Source: Amorphus orientalis
Lineage (GTDB): Bacteria > Pseudomonadota > Alphaproteobacteria > Rhizobiales > Amorphaceae
Direction: 5' to 3'
NCBI RefSeq assembly: GCF_030814015.1
Contig: NZ_JAUSUL010000005.1
Span: 62,001 to 126,000 of the forward strand
DNA length: 64,000 bases
Position numbers and translations under genes: made by a program. The notes below the pieces were generated by a model. That model was given only the letters and a program-made list of their open reading frames with translations. It had not been told where the DNA came from and ran no database searches. Of this stretch, positions 1,984-18,688 are shown one piece after another (positions within the stretch are counted from its first letter, which is position 1; each line of letters begins with the position of its first letter).

Positions 1984-2060
1984 CGGAGTGTAGCGCAGCC
2001 TGGTAGCGCACCTCGTTCGGGACGAGGGGGTCGCAGGTTCAAATCCTGCCACTCCGACCA
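1984..2060 (+). tRNA. tRNA-Pro (anticodon CGG), element insertion target
   Basis: A 77-nt cloverleaf with encoded CCA. The acceptor stem CGGAGTG pairs with CACTCCG, the anticodon stem is CCTCG/CGAGG with loop TTCGGGA (anticodon CGG, Pro codon CCG), and the T loop is GGTTCAAATCC. The intact gene lies on the left side of the integrative element. The 3' half is repeated at the right end. Confidence 0.97.
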
Positions 2061-2063
2061 TTC
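2013..2063 (+). repeat. attL: 51-bp direct repeat, tRNA-Pro 3' half
   Basis: Identical over 51 bases to 18638-18688. It starts in the anticodon arm (TCGTTCGGGACG) and ends three bases past the encoded CCA. Because this copy joins the rest of the tRNA, the tRNA stays functional after insertion. Confidence 0.95.
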
Positions 2064-2096
2064 ATTCCAATGACTTAGGCGAATCCCGAAATCGCC

Positions 2097-2116
2097 GCGG
2101 CAATGAAACGGCAACG
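2097..2116 (+). repeat. Candidate integrase/excisionase arm sites, left end
   Basis: Two copies of RCGGCAAYG (GCGGCAATG at 2097, ACGGCAACG at 2108) lie 11 bp apart, just inside the left att repeat. The same pair with the same spacing occurs inside the right end. A role as arm-type recombinase sites is inferred from position and spacing. Confidence 0.5.
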
Positions 2117-2122
2117 TTTCAG

Positions 2123-3235
2123 TCACGCCCTCTGCCTCCCCGCCCTACCGCTTGTGAACGCACGACCAACCCCGGCTTGGTGATCGGGATGGTGGTGACC
2201 GTATGTTTTCTCGAGGGTTTCCCGAGTCATCCCCAAATAGCCGGCTGACTCCCACATGTCGGCGCTGGCCTGCATTAGCCAGGTCGCGGAAGTATGGCGC
2301 AACGTGTGCCGGACAACGCCCTCGGCGTCCTTCCCGAGAACTTCCTTCACCAGCTTTCGGAAGGCGCGTTTTGGATCAGCAGGACGACCTTGGTACTCAC
2401 ACACATATCGGGCACCGCCCCTGCGCCACCGTCGCAAGTGGGCCAGCAGACAGCCGGGAAGACGAATCGGCGGCGCCTGCTTGTTGGCCGCGATCTGCTC
2501 GTCTTCCGGGGCGCGATAGAAGACCCCCGCCTCAAGATCGATGAATGGCCGTCCCGGTTCCCGCACAAACGACGCCTGCCAAACCCGTCCCGACCGACTG
2601 CCAGTGTACACCGCGACCAATAGGAAACGGGCGACATGTAGCGTTGGTCGCTTCTTTGTCGGGATTCCCCGTTGAACCTCCCGCTTGCGGTAGGCGGCGT
2701 GAACGAGCTTTGCCATTTGGGACCGGTCAAGATGCTTGACCCGCCCCTTAGGCTTAGGGGGCAGCGTGACGGTCACGGCGTGTCGGGTCACGTTGTCGGC
2801 GATCGCCATGCGACACGCCGCACGCAGATCTTCCAGTTCACGCCGTGCCTGTGCCGACGTGGTCCGCTGAGCGACATAGTCGCGGCAAGTCCTGGTGGTG
2901 ATGTCATCCAGCGTCTTGTCACCCCAGAAGGCTAGAAGGGCACCAACCCGCGCAGCCAGCTCCCTTGGGCGCCGGGCGCCTTCTTCCTTGATGGCAAGAT
3001 AGTGGGCTACGACTTCCGCAACGCCGACTTCACTGGCAGCCCGGTCCTTCCCCATTGGCTGGGAAATGAACTGCTTCGCGATGTGTTGGGCTAGCGCTGC
3101 TTCAGCCTTTCCACGATCGCTTTCGCCGCAACCAGTGCTGTGCTGTCGGCCCCCGTCGAGGATGATCCAGACGGCGCTACGGTCTTTGCTGGCCGGACGG
3201 AGCCAGAGTCTTGCTGGTTGGCGGCGACGCGGCAT
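2123..3235 (-). CDS. int: Tyrosine recombinase/integrase
   Basis: A 370-residue site-specific recombinase expected to insert the element into tRNA-Pro and excise it. The N-terminal region ([15 protein letters not shown]) and the SAM-like core-binding region with a [10 protein letters not shown] stretch are of the rhizobial prophage integrase type. In the catalytic domain I see YTGSRSGRV (Arg), [11 protein letters not shown] (HxxR) and [12 protein letters not shown] with the nucleophilic Tyr. The stop lies 60 bp from attL, the usual place. The N-terminus overlaps the preceding excisionase-like gene by about 145 bp in another frame. I keep the long start because the overlapping residues look like genuine integrase sequence. 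Confidence 0.93.
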
Positions 3236-3516
3236 TTTTCCATCATCTCCCCGATATACGCGATCGTCGTGAAATCCTTCCCCGCGATGCGCAAAAGGGT
3301 CAGGTTCCCGCGGCGCGCTTCGCGCCGAAGACCGTTCACCGTCATGCCGCCGTGCGGGAATGCCAAGGGCAGGATGTCAGCGAGCCGGACAGGCGCATCC
3401 GGGTCGGTGTTGTCGTTGGCAGCATTCAGCGCAGACGCCGAGCCAAAATCGGCGGCGGCCCCTTCTGCAGTCAGCACCTTCGGAACCCGCTGGCTTCGCG
3501 GCCTAGCCATTTCCAA
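3091..3516 (-). CDS. Excisionase-like small DNA-binding protein
   Basis: A 141-residue protein whose central part (AFPHGGMTVNGLRREARRGN, then [22 protein letters not shown]) resembles the short winged-helix proteins that sit directly upstream of integrases in alphaproteobacterial elements. It probably acts as a recombination directionality factor. The C-terminal tail is rich in Ser, Pro and Ala ([17 protein letters not shown]). Its stop lies about 145 bp inside the integrase gene, so the two reading frames share DNA and are probably co-translated. Its own start overlaps the end of the next upstream gene by 14 bp. Function is inferred from position and resemblance. Confidence 0.7.
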   Translation of the reverse strand: MEMARPRSQRVPKVLTAEGAAADFGSASALNAANDNTDPDAPVRLADILPLAFPHGGMTVNGLRREARRGNLTLLRIAGKDFTTIAYIGEMMEKCRVAANQQDSGSVRPAKTVAPSGSSSTGADSTALVAAKAIVERLKQR

Positions 3517-3880
3517 CGACCGTGGGACCCGAGCGCTGAAAATTGATCCCCGCCTCGGTCAGCATGGTCTCCAGAAGATCGTCCGGCGTTTCATAAGATG
3601 ACAAAAACCCGACCTGTCGAAGGTTCTCACTCTCCGACCGGGTTAGATCGTGCCGGCGCCAATCATTCTCATCATCCTCAACGGTTTTGATGTACGCAGC
3701 CGAAAGGCCGGGGTCGACCCTTCCCTCGCTGACTTGCTTTGCCAGCAATTCGAGATCATCCGCCGCAGCAAGGCTTCTTGCGGCATCGTCCGGAAACTCC
3801 TCCGCCTTCCGGCGGCGCCAGTCGGCAGTGCCCTCAAGCGTTTCGGCGAACCCGGAACAGAATTCGTCGTGATCCATCAT
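3503..3880 (-). CDS. Small acidic protein of unknown function, first gene of the int operon
   Basis: A 125-residue protein with no domain that I recognise. It is acidic and helical in appearance (MDHDEFCSGFAETLEGTADW at the start, then many Asp, Glu and Ala). The open frame is longer, but the tandem ATG codons at 3880 and 3877 are preceded by a good ribosome site (AAGGAGAG), while the upstream part is Cys/Arg-rich and falls in the promoter region. It leads the xis-int operon and overlaps the next gene by 14 bp. A role in control of excision is possible but not shown. Confidence 0.6.
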   Translation of the reverse strand: MMDHDEFCSGFAETLEGTADWRRRKAEEFPDDAARSLAAADDLELLAKQVSEGRVDPGLSAAYIKTVEDDENDWRRHDLTRSESENLRQVGFLSSYETPDDLLETMLTEAGINFQRSGPTVVGNG

Positions 3881-3950
3881 CTTCAGCTCTCCTTGATCTG
3901 ATCCTGCACCGGGCAGCGCCGGGCATAGGCACAAGCGTGTCCGGCTTCTT

Positions 3951-4004
3951 TTGCATAATGCGCAATTTACGCAAGACGTCAATTATCTTTTGCGTTTCGC
4001 GCAA
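3951..4004. promoter_or_regulatory. Two TTGC-N7-GCAA inverted repeats in a divergent promoter region
   Basis: TTGCATAATGCGCAA (3951-3965) and TTGCGTTTCGCGCAA (3990-4004) share the form TTGC-N7-GCAA, with centres 39 bp apart. An extra GCAA half-site lies at 3971-3974. They lie in the AT-rich gap between the int operon (minus) and the regulator-like gene at 4040 (plus), the expected place for operators of a lysogeny or excision switch. The binding protein is unknown. The gene at 4040 is the first candidate. Confidence 0.5.
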
Positions 4005-4039
4005 TATTAATTTATGCGGATCTGAAATGTGAGGCTGGG

Positions 4040-4570
4040 ATGGCAACGCCAAAGGAACTTGTCGAGACGGTTGCGGCTGCGCTGAATGTGACGGTCAACA
4101 CGGTTACGGTGCATGACCGCTATCTGCACGAAGCCGGCCTTCGCACATCTGGTGGGCGGGGGCGGGCAGCCGCGCGTGTGACCTACCAGGACGCGGCAAA
4201 CCTGCTTATTGCGATCGCGATGAGCCGAAACGTGAAGGACAGCCCAGAGACCGTTCGCACTTACTGTGAATTGCCGTCTGTTGGTGGCCGCTACCTGTTC
4301 GCAGACGAAAAGCGCGGCGCCAGTTTTGGCGACGCCTTGGCTGCGCTGTTAGAGGCGGCCGGAAATGATTCGATGAGTTACGGCTACCAAGACGACCTAG
4401 ATGTAACCTTGTTCGGCCCAACGCCAGGCGCCAGAATCGAATGGTCAAAACGGGGCACACAGACACAGCGCGACTATGGTGAGGTCAGCTACCTTGATCC
4501 GATCAAGTACATGGCTCGTCTTGATCTAACGCCGATTGGCGAGATCGGGCATAAAGTCGGAGCCCCTTAG
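4040..4570 (+). CDS. Putative HTH regulator, divergent from the int operon
   Basis: A 176-residue protein. The first ~60 residues (TPKELVETVAAALNVTVNTV, HDRYLHEAGL, then ARVTYQDAANLLIAIAMS) look like a helix-turn-helix region followed by a helical linker. The remainder (GRYLFADEKRGASFGDALAALLEAAG...) is not recognised. It is transcribed away from the integrase operon across two inverted repeats, which suggests a control gene of the element. Its stop overlaps the convergent gene at 4567 by 4 bp. Confidence 0.65.
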   Translation: MATPKELVETVAAALNVTVNTVTVHDRYLHEAGLRTSGGRGRAAARVTYQDAANLLIAIAMSRNVKDSPETVRTYCELPSVGGRYLFADEKRGASFGDALAALLEAAGNDSMSYGYQDDLDVTLFGPTPGARIEWSKRGTQTQRDYGEVSYLDPIKYMARLDLTPIGEIGHKVGAP

Positions 4571-4791
4571 ACATCTGTCGGCTCAATCAGTTCCCGCACT
4601 TCATCAACCGCCGATTTCCGATTTTTCCGGGCGATGTAGCGCTCGCGCCAATAGTCCAGCAGCGGCCGCATCTGGTCGCCTGCTTCGGGTCCGTCTTTTT
4701 CTTCCGCCCAATCGACTAGCTCAGCGGCCATGATCATACAGCGCTCAACCCGTTCAAGCGGGATTTGTCCGTTGTCGTATATCGGCTTCAT
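4567..4791 (-). CDS. Small hypothetical protein
   Basis: A 74-residue acidic, helical protein (MKPIYDNGQIPLERVERCMI, ... DYWRERYIARKNRKSAVDE). No family recognised. It is convergent with, and slightly overlaps, the regulator-like gene. The absence of a better frame here and the protein-like composition support it, but there is no independent evidence of function. Confidence 0.5.
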   Translation of the reverse strand: MKPIYDNGQIPLERVERCMIMAAELVDWAEEKDGPEAGDQMRPLLDYWRERYIARKNRKSAVDEVRELIEPTDV

Positions 4792-4841
4792 TGGCTTATC
4801 CCCCGTGAGAAGGGGCGCCCGACCACCGGGCGCCCGGCTGG

Positions 4842-5236
4842 TCAGGCAGCAGCCCGGTGGTTCTCGTTCACTGCCACCGGCGAATCGTCCACGTAGTAGA
4901 ACCCCGCCAACCCCATCGCCGACGCGGACACGCCGCCGGTGTCCTCGATGTATCGAAGCACGTTGCCGAACAGGCGATCAAGGCACCGCCATTCCGCTTC
5001 CGTGGGCGCCCCGCCTTCGAGGGTCAGCGCCACCTGCCCCCACGCCGCGCACAACTGGAACACCGCGCCTTCTGGGCTGCCACAAGGGTGAAATGAGGCC
5101 TCGGCGCCCAAGGCCGCTAACCGGTCCGTATGGCGCGCCGTGGGCGCGCCGGTGGCGTCCGCCAGGTGATAGAGGCCGCTATGGCACGGGACGCCTGGGG
5201 GGCAAGTTGCTTCGAGACGTGCTGGGATTTGGTCAT
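4842..5236 (-). pseudogene. Small hypothetical gene, apparently split by a frameshift in a six-base G/C run
   Basis: The 3' part (89 codons from a TTG at 5111) is protein-like (GGAPTEAEWRCLDRLFGNVL..., FYYVDDSPVAVNENHRAAA) but has no ATG or good ribosome site. Upstream, an ATG at 5236 (MTKSQHVSKQLAP) opens another frame. The two would join into one ~130-residue protein with one extra base in the homopolymer run at 5197-5202. The joined middle (GLYHLADATGAPTARHTDRL) also reads like protein. This could be a true mutation, a sequencing slip or slippage during expression. Function unknown. Confidence 0.45.
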
Positions 5237-5787
5237 ATCTAGATCTCTTGAAATCGGCTTGTCACAGCAACACCCACAAACGGCGTCGGCGGCCGGGGCT
5301 TAACAAGCGGACAAGAGCAACAACCTGGACGCATTTAAGTACGATTCTTCCTACAGAACCCCAAAATCGGCGATATATCGACTTTTTGGCTCCGAATTGA
5401 TAAGCTCTTCTGCTCTTCCAAACGAAACCATCAAATTTGGCGACTGCTTAATTTCCATAAAACGTTTTTCAATTGTAACACTGCCCGTAAACCACAAAAT
5501 ACAATATTGATTTACCAAAACATCAGACATTTTAATATATTCTACGAGGCACGAGTGCTTCTATTTAATTTTTATATTTTACTTTACTTTTTTTTAATTT
5601 CTTCCGAAAATCGACTAATATTATATAGCCTTTCACGAAGCGGTCATTGCGGATTTTCTTAACATACTGCGCACCCGCGCGATCCAGGCGCGTGGGGAAG
5701 AGTCCCCCCCCTGGGCCGTGAAGACGATGGCGGCCAGGAGATCCCCGGTTCGCGTGCTCCTGATTCAATTCGGGCGACACCGGATCT
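5237..5787. other. AT-rich intergenic stretch in the element
   Basis: About 550 bp without a convincing gene. From about 5330 the base composition turns strongly A+T rich, ending in poly-A/T tracts near 5560-5600. A perfect 10-bp palindrome CGATATATCG lies near 5370. A 71-codon minus-strand frame at 5565-5780 has no supporting signal. Promoters or foreign DNA are possible. Confidence 0.5.
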
Positions 5788-5789
5788 AT

Positions 5790-5822
5790 GACATATTGTC
5801 GCCAACATCGCGACGTTTTGTC
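5790..5822. promoter_or_regulatory. Paired GAC-N5-GTC operator-like sites upstream of a repressor-like gene
   Basis: GACATATTGTC (5790-5800) and GACGTTTTGTC (5812-5822) have centres 22 bp apart, two turns of DNA, and lie 38-70 bp before the start of the HTH gene at 5860. The first site, extended to TGACATATTGTCG, recurs exactly at 18455-18467 over the start of the RepA-like gene. This suggests that one repressor controls both. Confidence 0.5.
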
Positions 5823-5859
5823 GTACCGTTACGATCAGGCTTACAGGAGGCCGGCTGCG

Positions 5860-6375
5860 ATGGAATCCCCGATAGTTCCGTGGACTCAGACACCTAAACA
5901 GCAGCGTGAGGGACTAAGGGCGGCCCTTGACGAGCTTTCACTATCCCCGGCTGAACTGGCCGATTTACTTTATAAGCGCGGCGATTACCGGGATTTTCAA
6001 GCAAGAATCAGAAGCATCCAGAGAATGATTTCTGGCGAAAGTCGTGTCTCTGGAGAAATGTCGGTTATCTGCAACATGCTACTCCGCCAGCAACGGCGGC
6101 TTTTATTAAAATATCCCGATATTGAATGGAAAAAAGAAGCGAATGGAAATTACTATTCTACAATCGAAGACTGGAATGTTGTGATATGCCCGCAGTCTCG
6201 CGGAAGGTGGCAGGTCGTTTGCCGAAAAGGGCCAGAACCAAACGGCTATAGCCCGCCGTTTAGTCGCTATCTCAGCTCCCTCGAAGAGGCAAAAAAGAAA
6301 GCACCTATTTACGTAGAGGAAGGGATGAATGATATTGCCGAGATTCGACACCTAGAAAACATAATAGATTTGTAG
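5860..6375 (+). CDS. Putative repressor with N-terminal HTH
   Basis: A 171-residue protein. The ATG at 5860 is chosen over the longer frame because AGGAGG lies 8 bases upstream. Residues ~12-65 (LRAALDELSLSPAELADLLY ... IRSIQRMISGESRVSGEMSV) look like a Cro/C1-type helix-turn-helix in which RIRSIQRMISGE would be the recognition/wing part. The rest (WNVVICPQSRGRWQVVCRKG) is unrecognised. The gene is AT-rich relative to its neighbours. Paired palindromes directly upstream fit autoregulation. Repressor function is inferred. Confidence 0.65.
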   Translation: MESPIVPWTQTPKQQREGLRAALDELSLSPAELADLLYKRGDYRDFQARIRSIQRMISGESRVSGEMSVICNMLLRQQRRLLLKYPDIEWKKEANGNYYSTIEDWNVVICPQSRGRWQVVCRKGPEPNGYSPPFSRYLSSLEEAKKKAPIYVEEGMNDIAEIRHLENIIDL

Positions 6376-6574
6376 AACGATACCAATATTCTTTATATTA
6401 TATTTCGATAGGGTACCAGCGCAATTGAGTTCGTCACAGGGCTAGTGCAGGAAGGAAGCGCCCTGATAGCTGGGCAGCTATTGGCCGGGGCGGACAACGC
6501 CGGTTCAGCGCGGACGGATGTCCGCGCCGGACAACTGCACGCAACCAAATCCAGCAGCGGGGCGATTTAATGTG

Positions 6575-7006
6575 ATGCGCGCCGTGAATCACAGCTTCAG
6601 TAATCTCACCTTCGTCGGTACTGCACTTGCGATAATCACTCTGACCACGCCGGCAATCACCATGCCGATATGCACGGGCGGGGACCGCGCCGCGCGCCAG
6701 GTGACATGCATCGTGGACGGCGACACAGGGTGGGAACGTGGCCGCAAGTGGCGCGCCAAGGGCGTGGACACTCCGGAAATCAGCCATGCGGACTGCGCCG
6801 CGGAAAAGCATGCCGGTATCGCCGCGCGTGACCGACTGCGCGAATTGATGGCGGGAGGCTATGAAATCGAGTGGTCCGGCGCCCGGGGCAGTTTCGGCCG
6901 GGACCTTGTGACGGTGCGGCTGGCCGACGGCCGCGATGCGGGGCAAGTGCTGATCACGCAGGGGCTGTCGCAGCCTTGGCCGAACGACGGCAACCCGTGG
7001 TGCTAA
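6575..7006 (+). CDS. Exported thermonuclease-family (SNase-like) protein
   Basis: A 143-residue protein with an N-terminal hydrophobic segment (LTFVGTALAIITLTTPAITM) consistent with a Sec signal peptide or anchor. The SNase fold follows: TCIVDGDT, then WRAKGVDTPEISHADC (Arg, Asp, Thr and Glu of the active site), GSFGRDLVTV with the second Arg, and the C-terminal ITQGLSQPWP typical of small bacterial thermonucleases. It should cut nucleic acid outside the cytoplasm. An upstream ATG at 6518 would add 19 residues and bury the signal, so 6575 is preferred. Its role on a mobile element is unknown. Confidence 0.8.
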   Translation: MRAVNHSFSNLTFVGTALAIITLTTPAITMPICTGGDRAARQVTCIVDGDTGWERGRKWRAKGVDTPEISHADCAAEKHAGIAARDRLRELMAGGYEIEWSGARGSFGRDLVTVRLADGRDAGQVLITQGLSQPWPNDGNPWC

Positions 7007-7020
7007 CGATAGCCAGCAGA

Positions 7021-7374
7021 CTAGCAAAAAGGCGCTGCCGGTGTCGCGGCTACGGAACTGGCTAGCGCCTCCCGTTCCGCCTCTAACAGAAGGAAGGCTA
7101 AGAAAACATGACCGCGCTCTTCCGCAATGGGCGCCAACTCTTTGCACCTCCCCGCGATCACCCGCGACTCATCGGCAGGCTCGAAGACCTCATCACATCC
7201 ATCCGCTAATAACTGCCCGGAACTCGCTCGCGTCGACGCTTCCTGTCTTGCCAGATCGAGTAAATAAGCAAGGAGCGGAAGCCGGCAGCAATTCGCCGCG
7301 CGGCTCATTTCGACACAAGCTACCTCAATATATTCCGCCACCTCACCAGGCGACCAATCCTGCTGGTCCTGCAC
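7021..7374 (-). CDS. Hypothetical helical protein
   Basis: A 117-residue, largely alpha-helical protein (SPGEVAEYIEVACVEMSR..., RLPLLAYLLDLARQEA, ..., HVFLAFLLLEAEREALAS). Short proteins with the EVAEYIEVAC and LLAYLLDLAR pattern occur in alphaproteobacteria without assigned function. It is convergent with the thermonuclease gene and follows the TrlF-type gene on the same strand after about 250 bp of AT-rich DNA. Confidence 0.6.
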   Translation of the reverse strand: MQDQQDWSPGEVAEYIEVACVEMSRAANCCRLPLLAYLLDLARQEASTRASSGQLLADGCDEVFEPADESRVIAGRCKELAPIAEERGHVFLAFLLLEAEREALASSVAATPAAPFC

Positions 7375-7625
7375 TTTCTACCTCATTTGCCACTCCCCTT
7401 TGCCAGAAGAAGAATTGTCACCCTTATTACTTCCACCCACCTTCATACCTATTATTTTTTTCTGGCTCCGTAAATCAACGACACTGCAGAACGCCGATCT
7501 GAACATATATCCAAGCGTGACATACTGCCAACTGAAGCAGATGAAGTATGCCACGCCTCCCCACATGGACACAAAATAGGCCTATATACTGTCGTGGGTT
7601 TCCATGAAGGAGATCGGTCGAATTT

Positions 7626-10520
7626 TTAATCTTCCGGTCGATCGACCAGCGCCTGAGAAGGAGGTGCGGTTTCAAACCGATACTTCCGGCGCCGCAAATC
7701 AAATGCGGATTGCCCGCCCTCCATCACATGTGTAATCAAATCCTTCACCGAAGGTGTTTCTATCGAACCATCCTCCTCAACCGAAATCCTAACAGTGTTC
7801 ACATCGGGCCTTGGATCGCGATCGCCCGTCGTAAGCCCTATCACCTTATCAGCATCGCCATTTACCACTACATTCGGATTATGCGTCGCAAATATTAGCT
7901 GCCTTTTACTTTTAGAATCCCGAATGAGGTTCACCACCTTCATAACAACCTTATTATCTAGATCGTCTTCCGGTTGATCAATAATGAGAGTACCCGCCTC
8001 CTGGGACAGAAGGAGCTCGAGCAACGCGGATGCCTGCTGACCAGGCGACGCTTTATGAAACGCGACCTTCCGATTGCTCTCGTCTACGTAGGTTAATACG
8101 ATATAATCCTTTGGCGTCGCCGATATTATTTTTCCTACACTGTCATCATCAAGAGATGCATATATTTTCCTAAGTGATCTCGGCGGCACACTTTGGCCAA
8201 TACCGCTCGATATCACGTGATCAAGAATTTTAGCCGTTCCTTCGCCGGGCTCCGGCGGAGAGCCGGCCATCGTCTTTGCCTCGTAGGCAGCAAGTATGCT
8301 GTCGCAGACCCCGCACCACCCATTCTCACTGTCGGCACTGATGACTGTTTCCACCCACGACGAGCATTTGTCGCCAACGTCGCTAAGGTAACTCCCCCCG
8401 AGCAATGCTTCTAGCGCCTCGCAGAACTCATGGGGCTTTGCCGGCCGCTTAGTCTTAGCTATTAGGCTCCCACTCGAATGCCCCTCGACTTTTCCAGCGG
8501 CGCGACGCAGTATTTCGTTTCGCTCTTTTACCTTTTCAGAAAGATTTTCTCTCGATTTTTTGAGATTTTCAATGGCTCCAGAGGACGCATGGGACGCCTT
8601 CCTCGTAGATACCTCTGTTTCCTCTGCCGCAGCGCACTCCGATGTCAGCCGTTGAATGTCCTCAATCAAGGCCTTATGTGCAGTTTGCTGCTCGATCGCC
8701 TGCCGATGAAGCTCACCGAAGGCGTCCGCATCTTCATTAAACTCCGTACGCCGCTCGTTTAGTATAATCTCAAGATCAAGAAGTTCTTGCTTGACCTCTT
8801 GTAGCTTCGCCTGAATCCGATCTCTGGCATCATTGGCAGCGACCTGCAGCTCCGTGAGCATAGAAAAGCCATCCGGAACTGAACCTGCGGCGCCATCAAG
8901 CACCGTTCCATCGAGCTTCTGTACAGATTCCTTGGCCTCTACGATGCCAGTCTGAACCATGGCTAAAAAACTCTTGGCGCGAGAATATGCGGGCGCGCGC
9001 GCCAATACCTTGACCGCCTCTTCGCTACCCCCTTCTTCTTCAAGGCGCTTGTGATTTGCCATGAGCCGCTGGCGAATATCAGCACAACGCTGAACAGCAC
9101 GGTTATGCTCAAGCTTATCTTGCCAATGCGCCACGGCCTGCCGCAATGACGTAGTAACCGCGCGTTTGGCGTTGGAAATCCGCTGATCCACCTGTCGGCG
9201 CTGTTCCAACTCCTCCGCTGCAGCGATGCCTGTGATCTGGTCGGCGGCCTTGTCGGCGTCCTTCATGGTCGTCGAAAGGCCCTTCTGCTCAAACGCCCGG
9301 GCCCGGAATTTTTGGCGCGCATCATCAAGGATAAGCACGGTGGTACCGCCGCGACCGTCCGTGATGGTAATATGATCGCGTGTAACGAGGTCGCGTCGCC
9401 AAGTTTCCTGCACGCCATCTCTCTCCAAAACAATTTCGACGTAACCGTCACCGCGGAGCGTCTCCTCTATAAGAAGCTGGTCACGATCGCTACCAGTTGC
9501 GCCTTCTATAACGTTTAGATCTGAAGCCGTCCGAGCAAGACCGAAGCGTAGATACTCAATAATTGAACTTTTTCCAGCGCCCCTCCCCCCAATAAGCGCA
9601 TTAAATCCGGGATTGAAAGACATAGTCAATGGATTATCGCCACATACACTTGATTTCACTCGAAGTTCTACAATCCTTTCGTCTGGCTCCTTTGGCTCTT
9701 TGAAACTTACTCGAGATTCGTCAGCAAGTTGTGCTTGCCGCAAGCTCTCGATTGAATGTTCTCCAATTTTAATCCAGCAATCGTGGACGCCCAACCGAGC
9801 CCAACTAGGTTGCTTGTTGTCGCCTGTGGCGAAAACTGCGCGTCGGCGAACACCCCAATCTGTAGACCCACCTCGAAGTTTCGTAAGAGTAGCTTGGTCC
9901 AGATCATCAAATGGCAGTTCGATATAGACGCCATCGCAGGGTAGATCGGCGAACCTTGGCGCATGCCCCTTGGCGTTCGCGCTTTTGTGTGCGTCTACAT
10001 TGCTAAAGTGAGGAAGAATTAGCGACACGTCTCGTAGATGCGTGTCACCGTCGACCGCCTCTATGAGTTCGGCGAGCGTCCATCCGCAGGGCGTGATCTT
10101 AGAAGCTAAGGCGGCGTCTTTGTGCGCTGGCATAACGTTTGGCAGCATGTGCAAGAGCTTGGCCATAACCCCTGACGGGGCGCTTGGATCGAAGAGCACG
10201 AGGCATTGAACATTGTCACTGCACGTGATCTCCACTCCTCTGAACGCAAAAATGCTTTCCGCAGCCGAGTTGGCGGCGTCCGCTACGTATTGTGTTATGC
10301 AGACATCGTGGTGATCTGTTATGGCGATGAGGCTCAGTCCGCGCCGCTGACTTTCCGCAATGAACTCAGTCGCCCAGTTTCTACGGACCCGTTCATATGC
10401 GGGTGTCCCTCCGGGAAGACCGGCCCCTCCGCCCATCCATGAGCGATCACGGGGAGAGTGACCTTGTAGGTCGGATTTCCGCCAAACCGTCCCCGGATGA
10501 TGGCCTTTCTTACTTGGCAT
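7626..10520 (-). CDS. TrlF-family PHP-SMC fusion ATPase, likely defence cargo
   Basis: A 964-residue protein. The N-terminal ~270 residues are a PHP-type metal-dependent phosphoesterase: SDLQGHSPRD, ITDHHDV, RGVEITC, LPHFSNVDAHK and FATGDNKQPSW are the expected metal-ligand regions. The first His of the usual HxH is Gln (QGH). The remainder is an SMC/RecF-like ABC ATPase with Walker A ALIGGRGAGKSS near residue 310, a long central coiled coil (~430-680), the signature-like SPGQQASALL, Walker B GTLIIDQPEDDLD and the H-loop FATHN. It is AT-rich relative to the capsid genes and stands alone. ATG 10520 is chosen over a GTG two codons earlier. Such fusions are found in defence islands, so a role against phage is inferred, not shown. 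Confidence 0.85.
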   Translation of the reverse strand: MPSKKGHHPGTVWRKSDLQGHSPRDRSWMGGGAGLPGGTPAYERVRRNWATEFIAESQRRGLSLIAITDHHDVCITQYVADAANSAAESIFAFRGVEITCSDNVQCLVLFDPSAPSGVMAKLLHMLPNVMPAHKDAALASKITPCGWTLAELIEAVDGDTHLRDVSLILPHFSNVDAHKSANAKGHAPRFADLPCDGVYIELPFDDLDQATLTKLRGGSTDWGVRRRAVFATGDNKQPSWARLGVHDCWIKIGEHSIESLRQAQLADESRVSFKEPKEPDERIVELRVKSSVCGDNPLTMSFNPGFNALIGGRGAGKSSIIEYLRFGLARTASDLNVIEGATGSDRDQLLIEETLRGDGYVEIVLERDGVQETWRRDLVTRDHITITDGRGGTTVLILDDARQKFRARAFEQKGLSTTMKDADKAADQITGIAAAEELEQRRQVDQRISNAKRAVTTSLRQAVAHWQDKLEHNRAVQRCADIRQRLMANHKRLEEEGGSEEAVKVLARAPAYSRAKSFLAMVQTGIVEAKESVQKLDGTVLDGAAGSVPDGFSMLTELQVAANDARDRIQAKLQEVKQELLDLEIILNERRTEFNEDADAFGELHRQAIEQQTAHKALIEDIQRLTSECAAAEETEVSTRKASHASSGAIENLKKSRENLSEKVKERNEILRRAAGKVEGHSSGSLIAKTKRPAKPHEFCEALEALLGGSYLSDVGDKCSSWVETVISADSENGWCGVCDSILAAYEAKTMAGSPPEPGEGTAKILDHVISSGIGQSVPPRSLRKIYASLDDDSVGKIISATPKDYIVLTYVDESNRKVAFHKASPGQQASALLELLLSQEAGTLIIDQPEDDLDNKVVMKVVNLIRDSKSKRQLIFATHNPNVVVNGDADKVIGLTTGDRDPRPDVNTVRISVEEDGSIETPSVKDLITHVMEGGQSAFDLRRRKYRFETAPPSQALVDRPED

Positions 10521-10609
10521 CGTCACCGCCCTTTTAGCCGACTCGCAGAACTAGATCTGAAGCGCTTAAAGGATGTGGTTCAAGGGGCGTATTCAGCTAA
10601 TGGTCGCGA

Positions 10610-10993
10610 TTAGCTACGAAGCGCATCAGTTTTTGCCCGCACCGCATCCCGGACCCGGCAATGCTCTGCTTCGATCCCCGCTCCGGGGTGCTTTGTTGTG
10701 AAGTAGCCATCCTGACCTGTAGCCACGATTCGAAAATCGTAGACAGGCATCGTGGGATAATTCACGTCGAATTTTGCGACTACGCCCCGCGGGCGATCAG
10801 GAAGTATCCAGAAACTCACAATCGTATATTCGTCCGCCGCAGGGATATTCCCTTTCTTCGATGGGAAATTCATCTGACTCATCCATGCGTCATCAATAGC
10901 GCGGCCAATTGCCCCGGGCGGTGAGGTCGTTGGTTGCGGTGCGACTGGCGGGGTCGATTTGCAGTAAGAAAGACGGGGCGGCCGGCTGGCCAC
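10610..10993 (-). CDS. Hypothetical protein downstream of the capsid gene
   Basis: A 127-residue frame with a GTG start. The first ~30 residues are Pro-rich (TPPVAPQPTTSPPG), followed by a compact beta-rich part (YTIVSFWILPDRPRGVVAKF, PVYDFRIVATGQDGYFT). No family recognised. It begins 17 bp after the capsid stop, so it is probably co-transcribed with it. An internal ATG (MSQMNFPSKKG) is an alternative start. Confidence 0.5.
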   Translation of the reverse strand: MASRPPRLSYCKSTPPVAPQPTTSPPGAIGRAIDDAWMSQMNFPSKKGNIPAADEYTIVSFWILPDRPRGVVAKFDVNYPTMPVYDFRIVATGQDGYFTTKHPGAGIEAEHCRVRDAVRAKTDALRS

Positions 10994-11010
10994 CCCGTTA
11001 CGTTGGGCGA

Positions 11011-12903
11011 TTACGCGCCGGCGTTCTTCTGGAACGCGCGCCAGTCGATCACCTTGGCGCCGGCGTCCATGCGGACCTTGATTTCAACACCGTCGATGTT
11101 GAAGCCCATCTTGGACTCGGTGTAGACGCCGCGGCTGCCTTCCAGATACGCAAGCTCGACCGTGTCGGTAGCGGCTGGCGCGGCGGCCAGGTAGTGGGCC
11201 GTCGCCGAGCCAGCCACCGCAGCGCCGATCGATTCATTGCTGATACCGTTATCGATCCGCGGCTCGCTGATGATCGACAGCGCCTTGAGGCTGTCGGCAA
11301 CGGCGTTCGTGGTGGCGTCCGGGTAACGGGTCGAGCGCAGCAGCTCGGCCGCCGTGTCCTCAAGCTCAACAGGGATCATGAGGAAGGCCGGGCGGATATT
11401 CAGGACGGTCTTGCCGTCAATGCCGACCTGCTTGGCCATGGCCGTGCGCATCTTGGACAGCGTGCCCTTGCTGAATGCAGCGGCCGACTGAAGGTTCTTG
11501 TGCGATGCCAGGTGGAACAGCGCGACGTTGTCGCCCATGGTCGGGTTGGACAGGATCTGCCACCAGACAAGATCGCTCTCAAGCTGCGCGGCCTGTACGC
11601 CGAACATCTGCGCAAGGCGGCTGAATGCGCCGAGATCATCGTTGATAAGCGCCTGGCGGGTGATGCCCACGATCTTACCGAACGTGGCAATTTTGTAAGC
11701 CTCCTTGCCCTCGCCGATCGTGCCGCGCTTGAACTCGCCGTGCTCGTTCACCCGCTCAAGCTGCGGCGCTTCGCCAAGCTGCGCCCGCGTAACAGTCTTG
11801 AAGTCGGAAACGGTGGTCTCCCGCACCAGCGGGCGGAAAGTCTGCGGCGCGGCCTCATAAGCCGCACGCAGGGTGCGATTCACGGTGTTGCCCAGGATCA
11901 CGGTAAAGTCGGACGTGGTGTGCATGCCGCCGCCGCGATAGGCCAGCGTCTCGGATGCAACCTCGTACTTGGACATGCCGCGGGTGTTGATGCCAGACGC
12001 CTCAAGCGCATCGCGCGCAAGCTCAGTCAGCGTCATGCCACGGAATTCGCCCGCACCGTCCGTGAGGGTATTCGCGGACGGGTCAACGCGGTGCATCAGC
12101 ACGCTTTCGATGACGTGCGCCCGCTTTTCCGCGTGTTCCGTGCCGACTTCGGCGCGCACGTTGCCGCTGGTCGGGGCCTCGGCCTCCTTCGCGATCAGGT
12201 GCTCAAGCAGAATGCTGCGGAACGCATCAACCGACGTTCCTTCGCTGGCGTGCGTTTCGCCAAGTTCCGCGGCGTGGGCTTCCGTAGCAAGTTTGCGGAT
12301 GGTGGAGGCGCGTTCGCGCTCGGCGCGCACGGCGGCATGAAGGTCTGTGATTTCCACCATCGACCCGTCGTCGGTGTTTCGGTTTCGGAACTGCGAACCC
12401 GCATCGGCCGGCACCGGGACCGCGGAAATTTCCATCGGTTCCCAATCGATGACGCGCCAATCTTCGGTGCCGTCCTCCTTCTCGGTCTTTTCGACCGCGT
12501 GGATGACGTATCCGACGCTAATGTTGCGAATGACGCCGGTGCGGATTTTGTGCACCGTGTCCGCGTCACCCGGTGCGCTAGATAGCTGAACCCGGGCAAG
12601 CCCCTGCCCGCCTTCAATCCGCGCGCTGCCCGGGACCACGCTGCCGATGACCGATCGAAGCGACCAATCATCGTGCGTGTCCAAAAGCGGTGCGCCCGCG
12701 TTCAAGCGGTCCATGCGAACCGCCTCCGGCGTCACAACGAGAATTTCGTTGTAAATGTCGCCGGTGCGCCAATTCCGGCGCCGGACCGCGGCGCCGGTGG
12801 TCCACACCACCTCGATGGTGTTGTCCGCCTCGTCATACGATGCCGCGCGGATTTCAGCCGATCGCCCGAACTTGGGCGCGGCGATTGTTTCTTTGATTGT
12901 CAT
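11011..12903 (-). CDS. Prohead protease/major capsid protein fusion
   Basis: A 630-residue phage head protein. Residues ~20-170 are a prohead serine protease of the HK97/U35 type (LNAGAPLLDTHDDW with the catalytic His, GVIRNISVGYVI with the catalytic Ser region, WEPMEISAVPVPAD). Residues ~180-300 form a helical scaffold-like delta region, and ~310-630 are an HK97-fold capsid of the Mu gpT type (TRGMSKYEVASETLAYRGGG, FKTVTRAQLGEAPQLERVNE, GKIVGITRQALINDDLGAF, LNIRPAFLMIPVELED). In this fused family the protease is thought to release itself and trim the capsid. It is the only clear virion gene in the element. Confidence 0.92.
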   Translation of the reverse strand: MTIKETIAAPKFGRSAEIRAASYDEADNTIEVVWTTGAAVRRRNWRTGDIYNEILVVTPEAVRMDRLNAGAPLLDTHDDWSLRSVIGSVVPGSARIEGGQGLARVQLSSAPGDADTVHKIRTGVIRNISVGYVIHAVEKTEKEDGTEDWRVIDWEPMEISAVPVPADAGSQFRNRNTDDGSMVEITDLHAAVRAERERASTIRKLATEAHAAELGETHASEGTSVDAFRSILLEHLIAKEAEAPTSGNVRAEVGTEHAEKRAHVIESVLMHRVDPSANTLTDGAGEFRGMTLTELARDALEASGINTRGMSKYEVASETLAYRGGGMHTTSDFTVILGNTVNRTLRAAYEAAPQTFRPLVRETTVSDFKTVTRAQLGEAPQLERVNEHGEFKRGTIGEGKEAYKIATFGKIVGITRQALINDDLGAFSRLAQMFGVQAAQLESDLVWWQILSNPTMGDNVALFHLASHKNLQSAAAFSKGTLSKMRTAMAKQVGIDGKTVLNIRPAFLMIPVELEDTAAELLRSTRYPDATTNAVADSLKALSIISEPRIDNGISNESIGAAVAGSATAHYLAAAPAATDTVELAYLEGSRGVYTESKMGFNIDGVEIKVRMDAGAKVIDWRAFQKNAGA

Positions 12904-12997
12904 GAAAATCGACTTCCGGTAGCCGGCCTAGATTGTCAGGCGGCCCTTGCTGCTGTGTTTGACCCGCGGCGGACATTCACCGCGGGTGCTCCGCCGC

Positions 12998-13660
12998 TCA
13001 GACGTGCGTGCGCTTATTTGCGCCAGCGTCCGCGTGACCAGGGCCGCCGATGCCGTAGATTACATATGCGTCTTCGCGCGTGAGGCGCCCACCAGCCGCA
13101 CCGAAGCCCTCGAAGTCGCCGAGCGGAAGGAGACTAACGGTGTCGCGGAGCGTGGGGTCGATGGAGTACGTGCCGCCCCAGATCGTGACCGCGGTCGTCT
13201 GGATGGTCGGACGGCCGGCCTCGTCGTCGACGGTGGTTTCATTCGCCGCATCAACCGCGGCATCCGCTTCGGCCTCCGCCTTCGCCAGCGCGGCGATCTG
13301 GGCGGCGAGGCCGGGGTATTCATCCCGGATGCGGCGCGCAACGGCGTCGCGTTTCGCCACTGCGTCGCGGTAGGCTTTTATCGCGGCGGCCTCCTTCTCC
13401 GCCTCGACAGCAGCAGCGTGGCGCCGGTCCAACTCAGCGGCGGCAATTTCCGCCCTCTCGACCGCAAGCCGCGCCGTATCAATCGCCGCCTCAAGTCGCA
13501 GCAACTCCCCATCGGGTGCCCCCGCCACGAGCCGGTCGGCTCGTCGGGTCTTCGCCTCATCAAGTGCCCGCTCCAGGGCGGGCAGATCGATTGCCGCGCG
13601 GGCCTTTGCGATGTCCGCTGCGGACGTGTCGGCGGTCGGCTTCTTTAGGATTCCAAACAT
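12998..13660 (-). CDS. Coiled-coil phage-type protein
   Basis: A 220-residue protein upstream of the capsid gene. The ATG at 13660 (MFGILKKPTAD) follows a GGG-type ribosome site, and the longer frame upstream is only an Arg-rich shadow. Residues ~10-150 are an Ala/Glu/Arg-rich helical coiled coil, and the C-terminal ~60 residues (TAVTIWGGTYSIDPTLRDTV) are different and more globular. The position next to the capsid suggests a head-assembly or scaffold-like role, but no family is recognised. It overlaps the upstream gene by 16 bp. Confidence 0.65.
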   Translation of the reverse strand: MFGILKKPTADTSAADIAKARAAIDLPALERALDEAKTRRADRLVAGAPDGELLRLEAAIDTARLAVERAEIAAAELDRRHAAAVEAEKEAAAIKAYRDAVAKRDAVARRIRDEYPGLAAQIAALAKAEAEADAAVDAANETTVDDEAGRPTIQTTAVTIWGGTYSIDPTLRDTVSLLPLGDFEGFGAAGGRLTREDAYVIYGIGGPGHADAGANKRTHV

Positions 13661-14334
13661 TGAGCCCTTTCCTCGACGGCCCCGATGAGCCCGCCGAATT
13701 CGATGTGTTTGTTGATGACTTCGTGGGCGCGCTCGCCGTCGATGCGATGGTCTTGCATCAGCGCGACGGCCAAGTCCGCCACAGCGGCGCGGACGTTCGG
13801 CAAGGCCAGCAGGGCGGCCGCGGCGTCTTCGCCGGCTCGCCAGACTGCGGCCGCCGGTGCTGCGTTCTCCGCGCGCGGACTGACGACTTGCCACGCTCCG
13901 TATGCGGCAGAGCAGCCGTCGCAGCCGCCGCCCTGGAAGTTGAAAGTGCGCGCGACAAAGTCGACAACTTCAGTGTCCGGGGCGCGGTATCTCCAACCGG
14001 CTCGGGCGTCCTCGCCGGCGCCGCCGGCCAGCGCGAGCACGATGCGTGCAAAGGGTGGGAGATCAGCCCCAGGCGCGAACCTGACGCACTCAGGAGGGGC
14101 GACCGACACTGACGTGATTGTGGAACCAAGCCCGTGCCCCACGACCGCGTGGGCGGCCTCATGCCACGCTGTCCGCTCGGACACTTCATGCTCAACCTCG
14201 CCGACTGGCGGGCCGGGCTGGCCGGTGTGGCCGAATCCGACAACTTCGCCATCGGGCGCAGCAACATACCCCCGGCCACGTTCCTGCCCGGAGGCGCAGC
14301 AGGCGCGACGCACGTAGTTGGGCGCTTGGCGCAT
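13645..14334 (-). CDS. M41-like (FtsH-type) zinc metallopeptidase domain protein
   Basis: A 229-residue protein with TAWHEAAHAVVGHGLGSTI, the HExxH zinc motif in the form typical of FtsH peptidase domains, followed by IVLALAGGAGEDA, which matches the helix after the zinc helix in that family. No AAA domain is attached. Stand-alone domains of this kind occur in phages and prophages of alphaproteobacteria. The true start may lie inside the first ~40 residues, which are Arg/Cys-rich. It sits in the same operon as the capsid genes, so processing of a head or host protein is a plausible role. Confidence 0.7.
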   Translation of the reverse strand: MRQAPNYVRRACCASGQERGRGYVAAPDGEVVGFGHTGQPGPPVGEVEHEVSERTAWHEAAHAVVGHGLGSTITSVSVAPPECVRFAPGADLPPFARIVLALAGGAGEDARAGWRYRAPDTEVVDFVARTFNFQGGGCDGCSAAYGAWQVVSPRAENAAPAAAVWRAGEDAAAALLALPNVRAAVADLAVALMQDHRIDGERAHEVINKHIEFGGLIGAVEERAQCLES

Positions 14335-14549
14335 CCGGCGCTCCTGTTTTTTGATGATGTATTGGTCGGCGGCGTTGCGCGTCGGAACCTCCGGCGCTTT
14401 GCAACCTGATTGGGATTATTTCCCTATTCGCCTTGGCTTTTTCGGCAGCTAAAATGAAAGCAAAGTTGCTTCAGAAATTTTGAAATCAGGTCAGCTCCCG
14501 GGCCTTACCACCCGCATGGCCCCTGGGGCCGCCCGGAAGAACCTAACCG

Positions 14550-14559
14550 GGGGGGGGGG
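14550..14559 (+). repeat. Run of ten G
   Basis: An unbroken G10 tract, 4 bp beyond the stop of the MerR-like gene at 14564. Long G/C runs are prone to slippage. Here it lies between genes, so any effect would be on transcription or messenger structure. Confidence 0.7.
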
Positions 14560-14563
14560 AGGG

Positions 14564-14977
14564 TCAGGCGGCCCCTTCGGGTGCCGAGCACATCGCGAGG
14601 ATATCGTGGGCGATGCGCCCGAACGGTACGACGACAGCCCCGCGCTCGACCGCCCAGCGGCCGGCGGTTTCCGCATCGGCGGTGAACGTCTTGCCGCCTT
14701 CCGCCACGAGGAAGGCAGCCGCGCTTGGCAAGCGCTCGAGGTGCTGCGCCGCAGCAGGCAGCGCCTCCGCCATCGGCATTGCACGGTTCACGTAAAGTGC
14801 AACCCGCAACGTCGCGATATCGCGCGCCGACAACCTGCGCCGGCCACGGCGTCGTTCGCCAAGCCCAACCTTGGCGTGACGGTGAAGCAATAGCCGCACC
14901 GCGCCGGCACTGACGCCGCAGATTTCAGCCGCTTCCGGCGGCGTGAAGGCGCGAACGCGCCAAGAAATTTCGGACAT
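14564..14977 (-). CDS. MerR-like HTH DNA-binding protein
   Basis: A 137-residue protein with an N-terminal MerR-type winged helix: RAFTPPEAAEICGVSAGAVR, then RRGRRRLSARDIATLRVALY. The C-terminal part (TAGRWAVERGAVVVPFGRIA) is not a known effector domain. The start is supported by ACGGAG 6 bases before the ATG and by an AT-rich promoter-like stretch upstream. It could be a regulator of the late genes or, given its place before the head genes, a small-terminase-like DNA recognition protein. The two cannot be separated by sequence reading. Confidence 0.7.
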   Translation of the reverse strand: MSEISWRVRAFTPPEAAEICGVSAGAVRLLLHRHAKVGLGERRRGRRRLSARDIATLRVALYVNRAMPMAEALPAAAQHLERLPSAAAFLVAEGGKTFTADAETAGRWAVERGAVVVPFGRIAHDILAMCSAPEGAA

Positions 14978-15238
14978 GACGACTCCGTTTCATTCGAAAT
15001 ACTTTTTTCAAGGCACAAGAAAAGCCGCCGCACCCTTGGTGCAGCGACTTGGTGTTGACGCCCGGTTCGCGACCCCGCGGCGCGATCGACGGGCGATCAC
15101 GCGCCGTAGGACTAATGGCGCGCGATACTGAATAGGAGCGCCCGACGTGCGCTGGAAAACACGCCGGGCCAGCCGATAGACAGGTCAGCGACCACCGGCT
15201 TCCAATTCTACCCGCCGGCAGTCGAAAATGGGTATGCC

Positions 15239-15949
15239 CTATGCGGCGGCCCGCTCTCGACGCCAATGCGCCTCCACCGCGTCGAAGCCCAGAAACACCA
15301 AGGCGCGGCCGGCGCCCTTGGCACCAGATTTATTCCCAACGCCGAACGCGCGGCCGATTTCTTCAAGCGTGTCGTTCCCGACGACGGCTGCCTCGAACGC
15401 ATCCTGCAGGACTCCGAGCGCGGCTTGCGCCCGCGCCAATGCGCGCTGGGCGTCGATCCGCTCAAGGACGACCCACTCGCCGTTCCAAGGCTTCGGCGTG
15501 GGCTTAGGCGCCCCCCAGGGGTCTGAAGGATCTGTCCTGAGGCGCCGGCCGCCGGTGGCCCCCTTGGCTGGACCAATGGCGCGCACGCCTTTGTCGACGA
15601 GGCGGCCCGTAGAGGGGTCGAGATCTGTCCGACGGGCTTGGTATATGTCGTCACCCGGGTCCCTGCCCGCCAGCTCGACGATCGCGCGCGCGTTCTCGTA
15701 CATCCTTCGGTATCGCTCGGCCAGCCGAAGGTGCCGTTCGTGCCCCTCGGTCTTTAGCAACTTCGCAAGTGGCCAGTCTTGATTGTCATTCGCGACCTGG
15801 CCGCTGTACTTCTGCGAGGTGACCCATGCAGCCTGGGCTTTAATCCTATGCTCGATCGACGGCCCGTCGTTCGGCAAACGAACCACTTTGCCGCCGTTCG
15901 GGCACACATTGTCATTGGCCGCGCGTAGCCGCCCATCATCCAGCTTCAT
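15239..15949 (-). CDS. Hypothetical phage-type protein with possible C-terminal HTH
   Basis: A 236-residue protein. The ATG at 15949 (MKLDDGRLRAANDN) is used because GGAG lies 8 bases upstream, while the longer frame is not supported. The N-terminal half is basic and polar. The C-terminal ~60 residues (RAQAALGVLQDAFEAAVVGN, TLEEIGRAFGVGNKSGAKGA) resemble a helix-turn-helix of the kind used to recognise DNA. No named family is recognised. It precedes the MerR-like and head genes on the same strand, separated by about 260 bp without another gene. Confidence 0.6.
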   Translation of the reverse strand: MKLDDGRLRAANDNVCPNGGKVVRLPNDGPSIEHRIKAQAAWVTSQKYSGQVANDNQDWPLAKLLKTEGHERHLRLAERYRRMYENARAIVELAGRDPGDDIYQARRTDLDPSTGRLVDKGVRAIGPAKGATGGRRLRTDPSDPWGAPKPTPKPWNGEWVVLERIDAQRALARAQAALGVLQDAFEAAVVGNDTLEEIGRAFGVGNKSGAKGAGRALVFLGFDAVEAHWRRERAAA

Positions 15950-16159
15950 TGCCTGCTCCAGTCGCATCCGCCCTGACCGGCGGTCAGACGGCACAATCGC
16001 CGCCAACACAAAGCAAATGGGGCCGAAGCGCGAAAAGCGCCGACCGAAATCCACATCGATGTAAAAAGAAAGGGGTGTCGACCGGGCAACGGAAAACTGG
16101 GTTTCGCCGGGATTTAGGCCCGGCCAACTTCTGAATATTAAGCAATCACGCCCGAAAAA

Positions 16160-16759
16160 TCAAAAAAACTCTTCCGGGAAAAGTCGATATACTCTATTGA
16201 CAGGTTGTAACACGCAGGCTGCCCAACGGAACCGAATTGGCCACGCTACGTTGACCAGCGATTTACGTGACCAAGGGAGGCTTATATGCGCGCCCTCCAG
16301 AAGGTCGGCGACATAGCGATGACGAACGTCGACGGAACCTTCCGCACCGGCCGGATCGCGGCCATTGACGCAAGGTCCGCCCGTTTGATTTTGGCGGATG
16401 GCCAGACTGTCACCCGACCACGTCGCGACCTGAAGGCCGTTCGGCCCATTCCACAATCGGTCCTTCGCGGGCGCTGGCGGCCCGGGCGTCGCCGCATGTG
16501 GAGGCGCCCGCAAGGGTAGCGTTGCCCCCACCCCGTTATCATTCGCCGGTTCGGGCAGGGGTTCCGGCACGAACACCACGGGCGGGTCTTGGCGCCGGCC
16601 TATGTTGGTGGTGTCTTGGGTGTAGACGGTTCCGTTCCATTCGACAGTGCGGGCTATCTGCGGAATTTCCGCAGATGCCGATGCACGCAACGCACCGGCG
16701 GTCTTATCGCTTACCCCCGACCTTCGCGCGATTTCGCGGTCTGACCACGCGGCCCACAC
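16160..16759 (-). pseudogene. Truncated ParB-like/HTH regulator fragment
   Basis: The first ~70 codons from the GTG at 16759 look real: WAAWSDREIARRSGVSDKTA is a helix-turn-helix as found in ParB-like phage regulators, and RTVEWNGTVYTQDTTNIGRR is the block that usually follows it. From about residue 100 on, the frame is only the antisense of a plus-strand ORF with its own strong ribosome site. Upstream, the same frame continues through an in-frame TGA near 16791 to a short ATG frame. The gene therefore seems cut at both ends, or uses GTG and a foreign tail. Confidence 0.5.
16286..16519 (+). CDS. Small hypothetical protein with a strong ribosome site
   Basis: A 77-residue frame starting 9 bases after AGGGAGG, one of the best ribosome sites in the element. 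Residues 1-50 (GDIAMTNVDGTFRTGRIAAI, ARLILADGQTV) look like a small beta-barrel protein. The last ~25 residues are Arg/Trp-rich and antisense to the overlapping HTH fragment, so the C-terminus may be a chance extension after a recombination junction near 16450. Function unknown. Confidence 0.4.
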   Translation: MRALQKVGDIAMTNVDGTFRTGRIAAIDARSARLILADGQTVTRPRRDLKAVRPIPQSVLRGRWRPGRRRMWRRPQG

Positions 16760-18637: not shown

Positions 18638-18688
18638 TCGTTCGGGACGAGGGGGTCGCAGGTTCAAATCCTGCCACTCCGACCATTC
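18638..18688 (+). repeat. attR: 51-bp direct repeat of tRNA-Pro 3' half
   Basis: Exact copy of 2013-2063. It carries only the anticodon-arm-to-CCA half of tRNA-Pro, so no functional tRNA is encoded here. Confidence 0.95.

What the first reader, a model, noticed from the sequence alone, without database searches (positions are those of the whole stretch)
7626..10520. PHP-SMC (TrlF-family) ATPase as likely phage-defence cargo, with an altered metal motif
A single large gene of foreign base composition lies between regulators and the capsid cluster, a typical cargo position. The PHP domain keeps most metal-ligand regions, but the first HxH reads QGH. A satellite that carries such a gene could protect its host from competing phages.
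Basis: partly seen in the sequence, partly recalled or inferred. Interest (0 to 1): 0.6.

Follow-up and report, generated by a model that had tools for sequence, protein, structure and literature searches.

The report
Remodelled TrlF defence ATPase on island
A 16.6 kb integrated genetic island carries an intact gene for a TrlF-type protein (a metal-enzyme-like domain fused to a DNA-sensing ATPase) that probably defends against foreign DNA, and its odd metal site is not a defect of this copy but the fixed signature of a whole sub-branch of the family.

Summary
The gene at 7626-10520(-) encodes a full-length TrlF-family PHP-SMC protein (NCBIfam NF045780, 433.5 bits; cut-off 350). Its GC is 53%, against 67% in the host. 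It lies in an island bounded by perfect 51-bp att repeats at tRNA-Pro.

The "altered metal motif" is real but under-counted and over-read. Measured against solved PHP proteins, three of nine ligand positions are changed: position 1 His to Gln21, position 6 His to Gln107, position 9 His to Lys238. All three changes (Lys or Arg at 9) occur in 17 of 17 members of one strongly supported clade. So Gln is normal in this branch.

The PHP fold is nearest to the DNA endonuclease EndoQ, and the ATPase head to SMC/Rad50. Clade members sit near DNA methyltransferase genes more often than canonical TrlFs (8/16 against 4/35, p=0.005), twice as mod-res-trlF operons. This supports defence only indirectly; I found no phage test of TrlF.

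The island is satellite-like, but has one capsid gene and no recognised portal, terminase or tail gene.

Best reading: mobile defence cargo with a remodelled, possibly non-nucleolytic PHP domain. New variant of a known kind.

The parts
7626..10520 (-). trlF-family gene (964 aa from the ATG at 10520; 966 aa if the GTG at 10526 is used; residue numbers in this report count from the GTG)
   Evidence: NF045780 433.5 bits, cut-off 350, full length; ORF and start
9672..10526 (-). PHP domain, residues 1-285
   Evidence: AF2 model pLDDT 84.9, pTM 0.86; EndoQ fold match Z 17.9
10464..10466 (-). codon of Gln21, PHP ligand position 1 (His in canonical TrlF)
   Evidence: Gln in 17/17 of the clade, His in 35/35 canonical TrlF
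10206..10208 (-). codon of Gln107, PHP ligand position 6
   Evidence: Gln in 17/17 of the clade; position mapped on TM0559
9813..9815 (-). codon of Lys238, PHP ligand position 9 (His of SDxH in canonical TrlF)
   Evidence: Lys/Arg in 17/17 of the clade, His in 35/35 canonical
9567..9590 (-). Walker A GGRGAGKS, residues 313-320
8478..9218 (-). coiled-coil arms, residues 437-683
   Evidence: long helices in the AF2 model
7677..8177 (-). C-terminal half of the SMC/Rad50-like ATPase head with signature, Walker B and switch His, residues 784-950
   Evidence: Pfam AAA_21 and SMC_N; fold matches
10610..10993 (-). small ORF (127 aa) 84 bp upstream of trlF on the same strand, unknown function
   Evidence: No PADLOC or PHROG hit
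10973..10998 (-). terminator-like hairpin between the capsid gene and ORF 10610
   Evidence: 11-pair stem with T-rich tail; consensus match only
11011..12903 (-). prohead protease/major capsid fusion gene of the island
   Evidence: NF045541 690.7 bits, cut-off 525
2123..3235 (-). tyrosine integrase of the island
   Evidence: PHROG integrase 1.7e-28
2013..2063 (+). att repeat, copy 1 (3' part of tRNA-Pro(CGG) 1984-2060 and three bases beyond)
   Evidence: 51/51 identical direct repeat; tRNA
18638..18688 (+). att repeat, copy 2, right end of the island

Best explanation
This is a TrlF-family anti-mobile-element (most likely anti-phage) protein carried as cargo on an integrated, satellite-like island. 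Shown: a PHP domain fused to an intact SMC/Rad50-type ATPase with coiled-coil arms; mobile setting; clade-wide replacement of three PHP metal ligands (His to Gln, Gln and Lys/Arg) with most other mapped ligands kept. Inferred: ATP-driven head dimers recognise an abnormal or invading DNA structure, such as DNA ends, as reported for the analogous PHP-SMC protein Ppl, and the ATP state then controls access of DNA to the PHP pocket. Because one ligand appears to be gone from each of the three metal sites (site assignment from my own knowledge of YcdX), the PHP domain either works with fewer or different metals (a weak or retuned nuclease) or acts as a DNA-binding module. Sequence alone does not decide; I put it at roughly even odds.
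For: Family and domain matches. PHP-only model fits EndoQ, a DNA endonuclease, Z 17.9, ahead of RNase AM and Pol III/PolC PHP domains. Head fits SMC, Rad50 and RecN heads, Z up to about 19, and Foldseek lists the Wadjet JetC-type, Lamassu and PARIS AriA ATPases among its matches. The Gln clade is one side of a branch with SH-aLRT 100. Ligand pattern is 17/17, with mapping checked against TM0559, RNase AM and YcdX. Clade neighbours: mod-res-trlF with gaps under 10 bp in L188 and the same order in L191; Mrr-nSTAND3 protein 33 bp upstream of trlF; Hma system; type IIG enzymes and methyltransferases. Methyltransferase within 8 kb in 8/16 against 4/35 canonical TrlF, p=0.005, and 6/9 against 4/35 without plasmid records, p=0.002. 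TrlF relatives occur on 713 plasmid records, 567 of them conjugative. Ppl is described as a PHP exonuclease with NTPase control (PMC12904381), and ppl correlates with phage resistance in S. epidermidis (PMC13152194).
Against: No phage or plasmid challenge of any TrlF was found in the library searched. The Photorhabdus TRL study found no trlF mutants among its suppressors and left its role open (PMC7554251). The window copy has no methyltransferase beside it, and neither do about half of the clade loci. Neighbourhood counts are small, not corrected for relatedness, and limited by contig ends. The changed ligands could mean a dead PHP domain.
Confidence: 0.62

Rival explanations
1. The PHP domain of this clade is catalytically dead and only structural or DNA-binding. 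The cutting step is done by another protein, such as the restriction enzymes encoded beside many clade members, or by host nucleases. TrlF supplies ATP-driven sensing. (This is a sub-case of the defence reading and overlaps with it.)
For: In E. coli Pol III the PHP domain lost five ligands including positions 1 and 9 (both Arg), binds no metal and is structural; in polymerases such loss goes with a separate exonuclease (PMC3666897). Here position 9 is Lys/Arg in 17/17, positions 1 and 6 are Gln, and methyltransferase neighbours are enriched compared with canonical TrlF.
Against: H23, H72, E99 and D236 stay invariant over a clade with members only about 27% identical to the window protein, arguably more than a scaffold needs. 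The window copy has no recognised partner nuclease next to it apart from a nuclease-like ORF at 6518-7006 (PHROG endonuclease 1.5e-8). The sister clade with Gln-x-Asn at motif I showed 0/8 methyltransferase neighbours, though on short contigs.
Confidence: 0.4
2. The protein serves the island itself: an ATP-driven DNA processing factor for its replication, recombination or packaging, not defence.
For: Rad50/SMC-like ATPases take part in DNA processing, and the gene sits next to the island's capsid gene.
Against: Clade relatives sit on plasmids and chromosomes without this capsid or integrase and beside restriction genes. The gene's GC differs from that of the capsid, integrase and helicase genes, which suggests a later-acquired passenger.
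Confidence: 0.12
3. A housekeeping DNA-repair protein that happens to lie on the island.
For: EndoQ and Rad50 are repair proteins and are the fold relatives.
Against: Patchy presence: 11 of 297 genomes of the order and 13 of 385 of the class; absent from the same-genus genome; frequent on plasmids.
Confidence: 0.05
4. The QGH reading is a sequencing error or gene decay.
For: Some relatives are broken or frame-split (L190, L192, L007).
Against: Gln at positions 1 and 6 and Lys/Arg at position 9 in 17 of 17 independent sequences; the ORF is open and all ATPase motifs are intact.
Confidence: 0.01

Closest known systems
TrlF family AAA-like ATPase (NCBIfam NF045780)
   Same: Full-length match above the curated cut-off; same PHP plus SMC/Rad50-like architecture and intact ATPase motifs.
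   Different: Belongs to a distinct clade with Gln at PHP positions 1 and 6 and Lys/Arg at position 9; 35 canonical sequences keep HxH and SDxH. No trlG-like helicase was recognised beside it.
Ppl (anti-phage protein, NCBIfam NF042955, PADLOC PDLC02208)
   Same: PHP domain fused to an SMC-like ATPase; clear but partial similarity (181.5 bits, mainly the C-terminal head).
   Different: Far below the Ppl cut-off of 1000 bits. Reported Ppl exonuclease activity was not tested for TrlF.
PHP domain of E. coli DNA polymerase III alpha
   Same: A variant PHP domain with positions 1 and 9 replaced (Arg and Arg there; Gln and Lys here); the fold matches.
   Different: Pol III also lost positions 4, 5 and 7; here His at 4 and Glu at 5 are kept. 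Different partner domain.
Endonuclease Q (PDB 5zb8, 7k30)
   Same: Nearest solved fold of the PHP domain, a DNA endonuclease.
   Different: 13-14% identity; EndoQ keeps HxH and SDAH and has its own C-terminal region instead of an SMC head.
Capsid-forming phage satellites (cf-PICI)
   Same: Integrated element with an integrase, att repeats and its own capsid gene.
   Different: Only one capsid/protease fusion gene recognised; no portal, terminase or connector family found.

Membership tests
TrlF family (NF045780) | Whole-protein score above the curated cut-off | tested here: met
   433.5 against 350 bits, profile 2-944 of 944
TrlF family (NF045780) | N-terminal PHP domain plus SMC/Rad50-like ATPase with coiled coil | tested here: met
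   Models and fold searches; ATPase motifs
TRL operon trlR-trlF-trlG (Photorhabdus type) | RecG-like trlG and trlR beside trlF | tested here: not met
   None of the flanking ORFs examined gives such a hit
Canonical metal-binding PHP domain | Full nine-ligand set | tested here: not met
   Positions 1, 6 and 9 are Gln, Gln and Lys
Variant PHP domain (sense of PMC3666897) | PHP fold with an incomplete ligand set | tested here: met
   Fold. Ligands:
Ppl anti-phage system | NF042955 curated cut-off | tested here: not met
   181.5 bits against 1000
Anti-phage defence gene | Protection against phage | not testable with these tools
   Only indirect genomic context
Integrated mobile island | Integrase, flanking att repeats at a tRNA, unoccupied site in a relative | tested here: met
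cf-PICI-type phage satellite | Own capsid set with portal and terminase | tested here: not met
   One protease/capsid fusion; no portal, terminase or connector family hit among the ORFs examined
Phage satellite in general | Mobilised by a helper phage | not testable with these tools
   No infection or induction data

The most novel reading that the evidence does not exclude
A whole TrlF clade has rebuilt its PHP centre by swapping one ligand in each of the three metal sites (His to Gln, Gln and Lys/Arg), turning a zinc nuclease into either a nuclease using different metals or an ATP-gated DNA sensor that relies on partner restriction enzymes. It would then be a restriction-coupled form of PHP-SMC defence.
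Probability: 0.3. Interest if true: 0.6.

Novelty: new variant of a known kind. Interest (0 to 1): 0.42.

Why it matters
PHP-SMC proteins are a widespread but poorly understood kind of single-gene defence. A clade in which metal ligands are replaced while the ATPase is untouched separates the sensing and cutting halves by natural experiment. It makes it directly testable whether the PHP domain must be a nuclease for defence. It also shows that an apparently damaged motif in one gene can be the fixed state of its branch.

Tried and rejected
Viral contigs searched with the window protein alone gave nothing; the clade alignment gave 12 distant relatives, two of them (L156, L157) in the Gln clade. 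Other islands of the same kind were sought through the capsid, helicase and integrase. The capsid hit many phages (81% best-segment identity to L066, which carries terminase- and portal-like ORFs), but no related island turned up in the loci compared, so variation of the cargo slot between sister islands could not be tested. Listeria phage contigs with TrlF belong to another branch. Papers on TrlF defence: none found. No Pfam hit for the PHP region alone and no single-sequence PDB hit; the profile and fold searches were needed. The compensation idea (dead PHP goes with a restriction partner) has only partial support: Gln clade 8/16 and a second group lacking the position 9 His 4/10, but the Gln-x-Asn clade 0/8, on short contigs. 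An order-wide search around G340 rang nothing.

Full report
1. The observation. The gene at 7626-10520 on the minus strand is real and full length. The longest ORF begins at GTG 10526; the ATG at 10520 has a better-placed ribosome site. The protein matches the NCBIfam TrlF equivalog from end to end at 433.5 bits against a cut-off of 350 and is the only one over cut-off in its 4.7 Mb genome. Its ATPase motifs are complete. GC is 53.2%, about ten standard deviations below 2.9-kb windows of the flanking chromosome and also below the capsid, integrase and helicase genes of its own island.

2. The setting. A perfect 51-bp repeat at 2013-2063 and 18638-18688 begins inside tRNA-Pro(CGG) at 1984-2060, and an integrase gene lies just inside. 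In the same-genus genome G009 the 51-bp site lies intact near the matching left-flank gene, with no island gene beside it; the right flank there differs, so the site is unoccupied but not shown to be fully syntenic. The island is therefore about 16.6 kb and mobile. It holds a prohead-protease/major-capsid fusion and a helicase/primase-like gene, but no portal, terminase or tail gene was recognised among the ORFs examined. 'Satellite' is a fair inference, not a demonstration.

3. The metal motif. I gathered 71 TrlF proteins with PHP domains from genomes, plasmids and viral contigs and aligned them. Ligand positions 1, 2, 4, 5, 6, 8 and 9 were fixed by a profile alignment to solved PHP proteins TM0559, RNase AM and YcdX, with the nine-ligand consensus of PMC3666897. 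In the window protein position 1 is Gln21, 2 His23, 4 His72, 5 Glu99, 6 Gln107, 8 Asp236 and 9 Lys238. His173 is the likely position 7 and Asp27 a candidate for position 3; neither was verified. In all 17 members of the branch positions 1 and 6 are Gln and position 9 is Lys or Arg. In 35 other TrlF proteins positions 1, 2, 8 and 9 are His, His, Asp, His. The Gln branch is one clade with SH-aLRT 100 in a tree of 69 rows. A second clade has Gln-x-Asn at motif I. Position 27 is Asp in 27, Tyr in 8 and Ser in 1 of the 36 sequences lacking the position 9 His, and Ser, Thr or Ala in all 35 that have it. From my own knowledge of YcdX, positions 1, 6 and 9 belong to three different metal sites, so each site would lose one ligand.

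4. What the domains resemble. The PHP domain alone models well (pLDDT 84.9, pTM 0.86) and its nearest solved fold is the DNA endonuclease EndoQ (Z 17.9, rmsd 4.6 over 229 residues), followed by other PHP enzymes and the PHP domains of replicative polymerases. The rest models as an SMC/Rad50-like head with coiled coils. Shared fold does not show shared activity.

5. Neighbourhood. Within the Gln clade, trlF directly follows type III-like mod and res genes in two Sphingomonadaceae plasmids and an Mrr-nSTAND3 gene by 33 bp in Agrobacterium. It lies next to an Hma system, type IIG enzymes and methyltransferases, or a ResIII/methyltransferase/SNF2 group. Using the [DNS]PP[YFW] motif as an even-handed marker, 8 of 16 clade loci have a methyltransferase within 8 kb against 4 of 35 canonical TrlF loci (Fisher p 0.005). 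Without plasmid records it is 6 of 9 against 4 of 35, p 0.002. Ten marker hits were put to PADLOC and all ten are methyltransferases. Limits: few loci, relatedness not corrected, some contigs short, groups drawn from different collections. The window copy itself has no such neighbour.

6. Function. No test of any TrlF against phage was found in the open library. The founding TRL study traced its growth phenotype to trlG and found no mutations in trlF (PMC7554251). The nearest tested protein is Ppl, described as a PHP exonuclease governed by NTP levels and DNA 3' ends (PMC12904381) and correlated with phage resistance in S. epidermidis (PMC13152194). The window protein is not Ppl by score. Mobile carriage, family analogy and restriction-rich neighbourhoods make defence the best reading. 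Whether the PHP domain still cuts is open: E. coli Pol III shows that loss of positions 1 and 9, among others, can leave an inactive structural domain, while the strict conservation of the other mapped ligands argues for a working site.

7. Verdict. Observation confirmed and extended. New variant of a known kind.

Noticed in passing
window 2013-18688: Island carries a protease/major-capsid fusion gene but no recognised portal, terminase or tail gene; the capsid's best segment is 81% identical to a phage contig (L066) with terminase- and portal-like ORFs upstream.
   Followed up: partly
window 6518-7006 (+): Small nuclease-like ORF (PHROG endonuclease 1.5e-8; PADLOC SNc+LTD 2.5e-4) near trlF; GC 64.6%.
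   Followed up: no
window 5788-6375 (+): 195-aa ORF of very low GC (48%) with no Pfam, NCBIfam, PHROG or PADLOC hit; possibly a regulator.
   Followed up: no
TrlF alignment, positions 27 and 238 (window numbering): Position 27 is Ser/Thr/Ala whenever the position 9 His is present, and Asp (27 of 36), Tyr (8) or Ser (1) when it is absent: a covariation across the family.
   Followed up: partly
L016, L017, L015, L018, L041, L055, L056, L057: A second TrlF clade with ALQVNP-like motif I (positions 1 and 2 Gln and Asn) and no His at position 9, ATPase intact.
   Followed up: partly
L190 and L192 (Bradyrhizobium plasmids), L007 (Acetobacter): Broken or frame-split copies of Gln-clade trlF, near insertion sequences or a methyltransferase gene, a sign of turnover.
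   Followed up: no
plasmids collection: 713 plasmid records (567 conjugative) carry TrlF-like genes, mostly Enterobacteriaceae, including one of Vibrio anguillarum, a species reported to carry the TRL operon.
   Followed up: no
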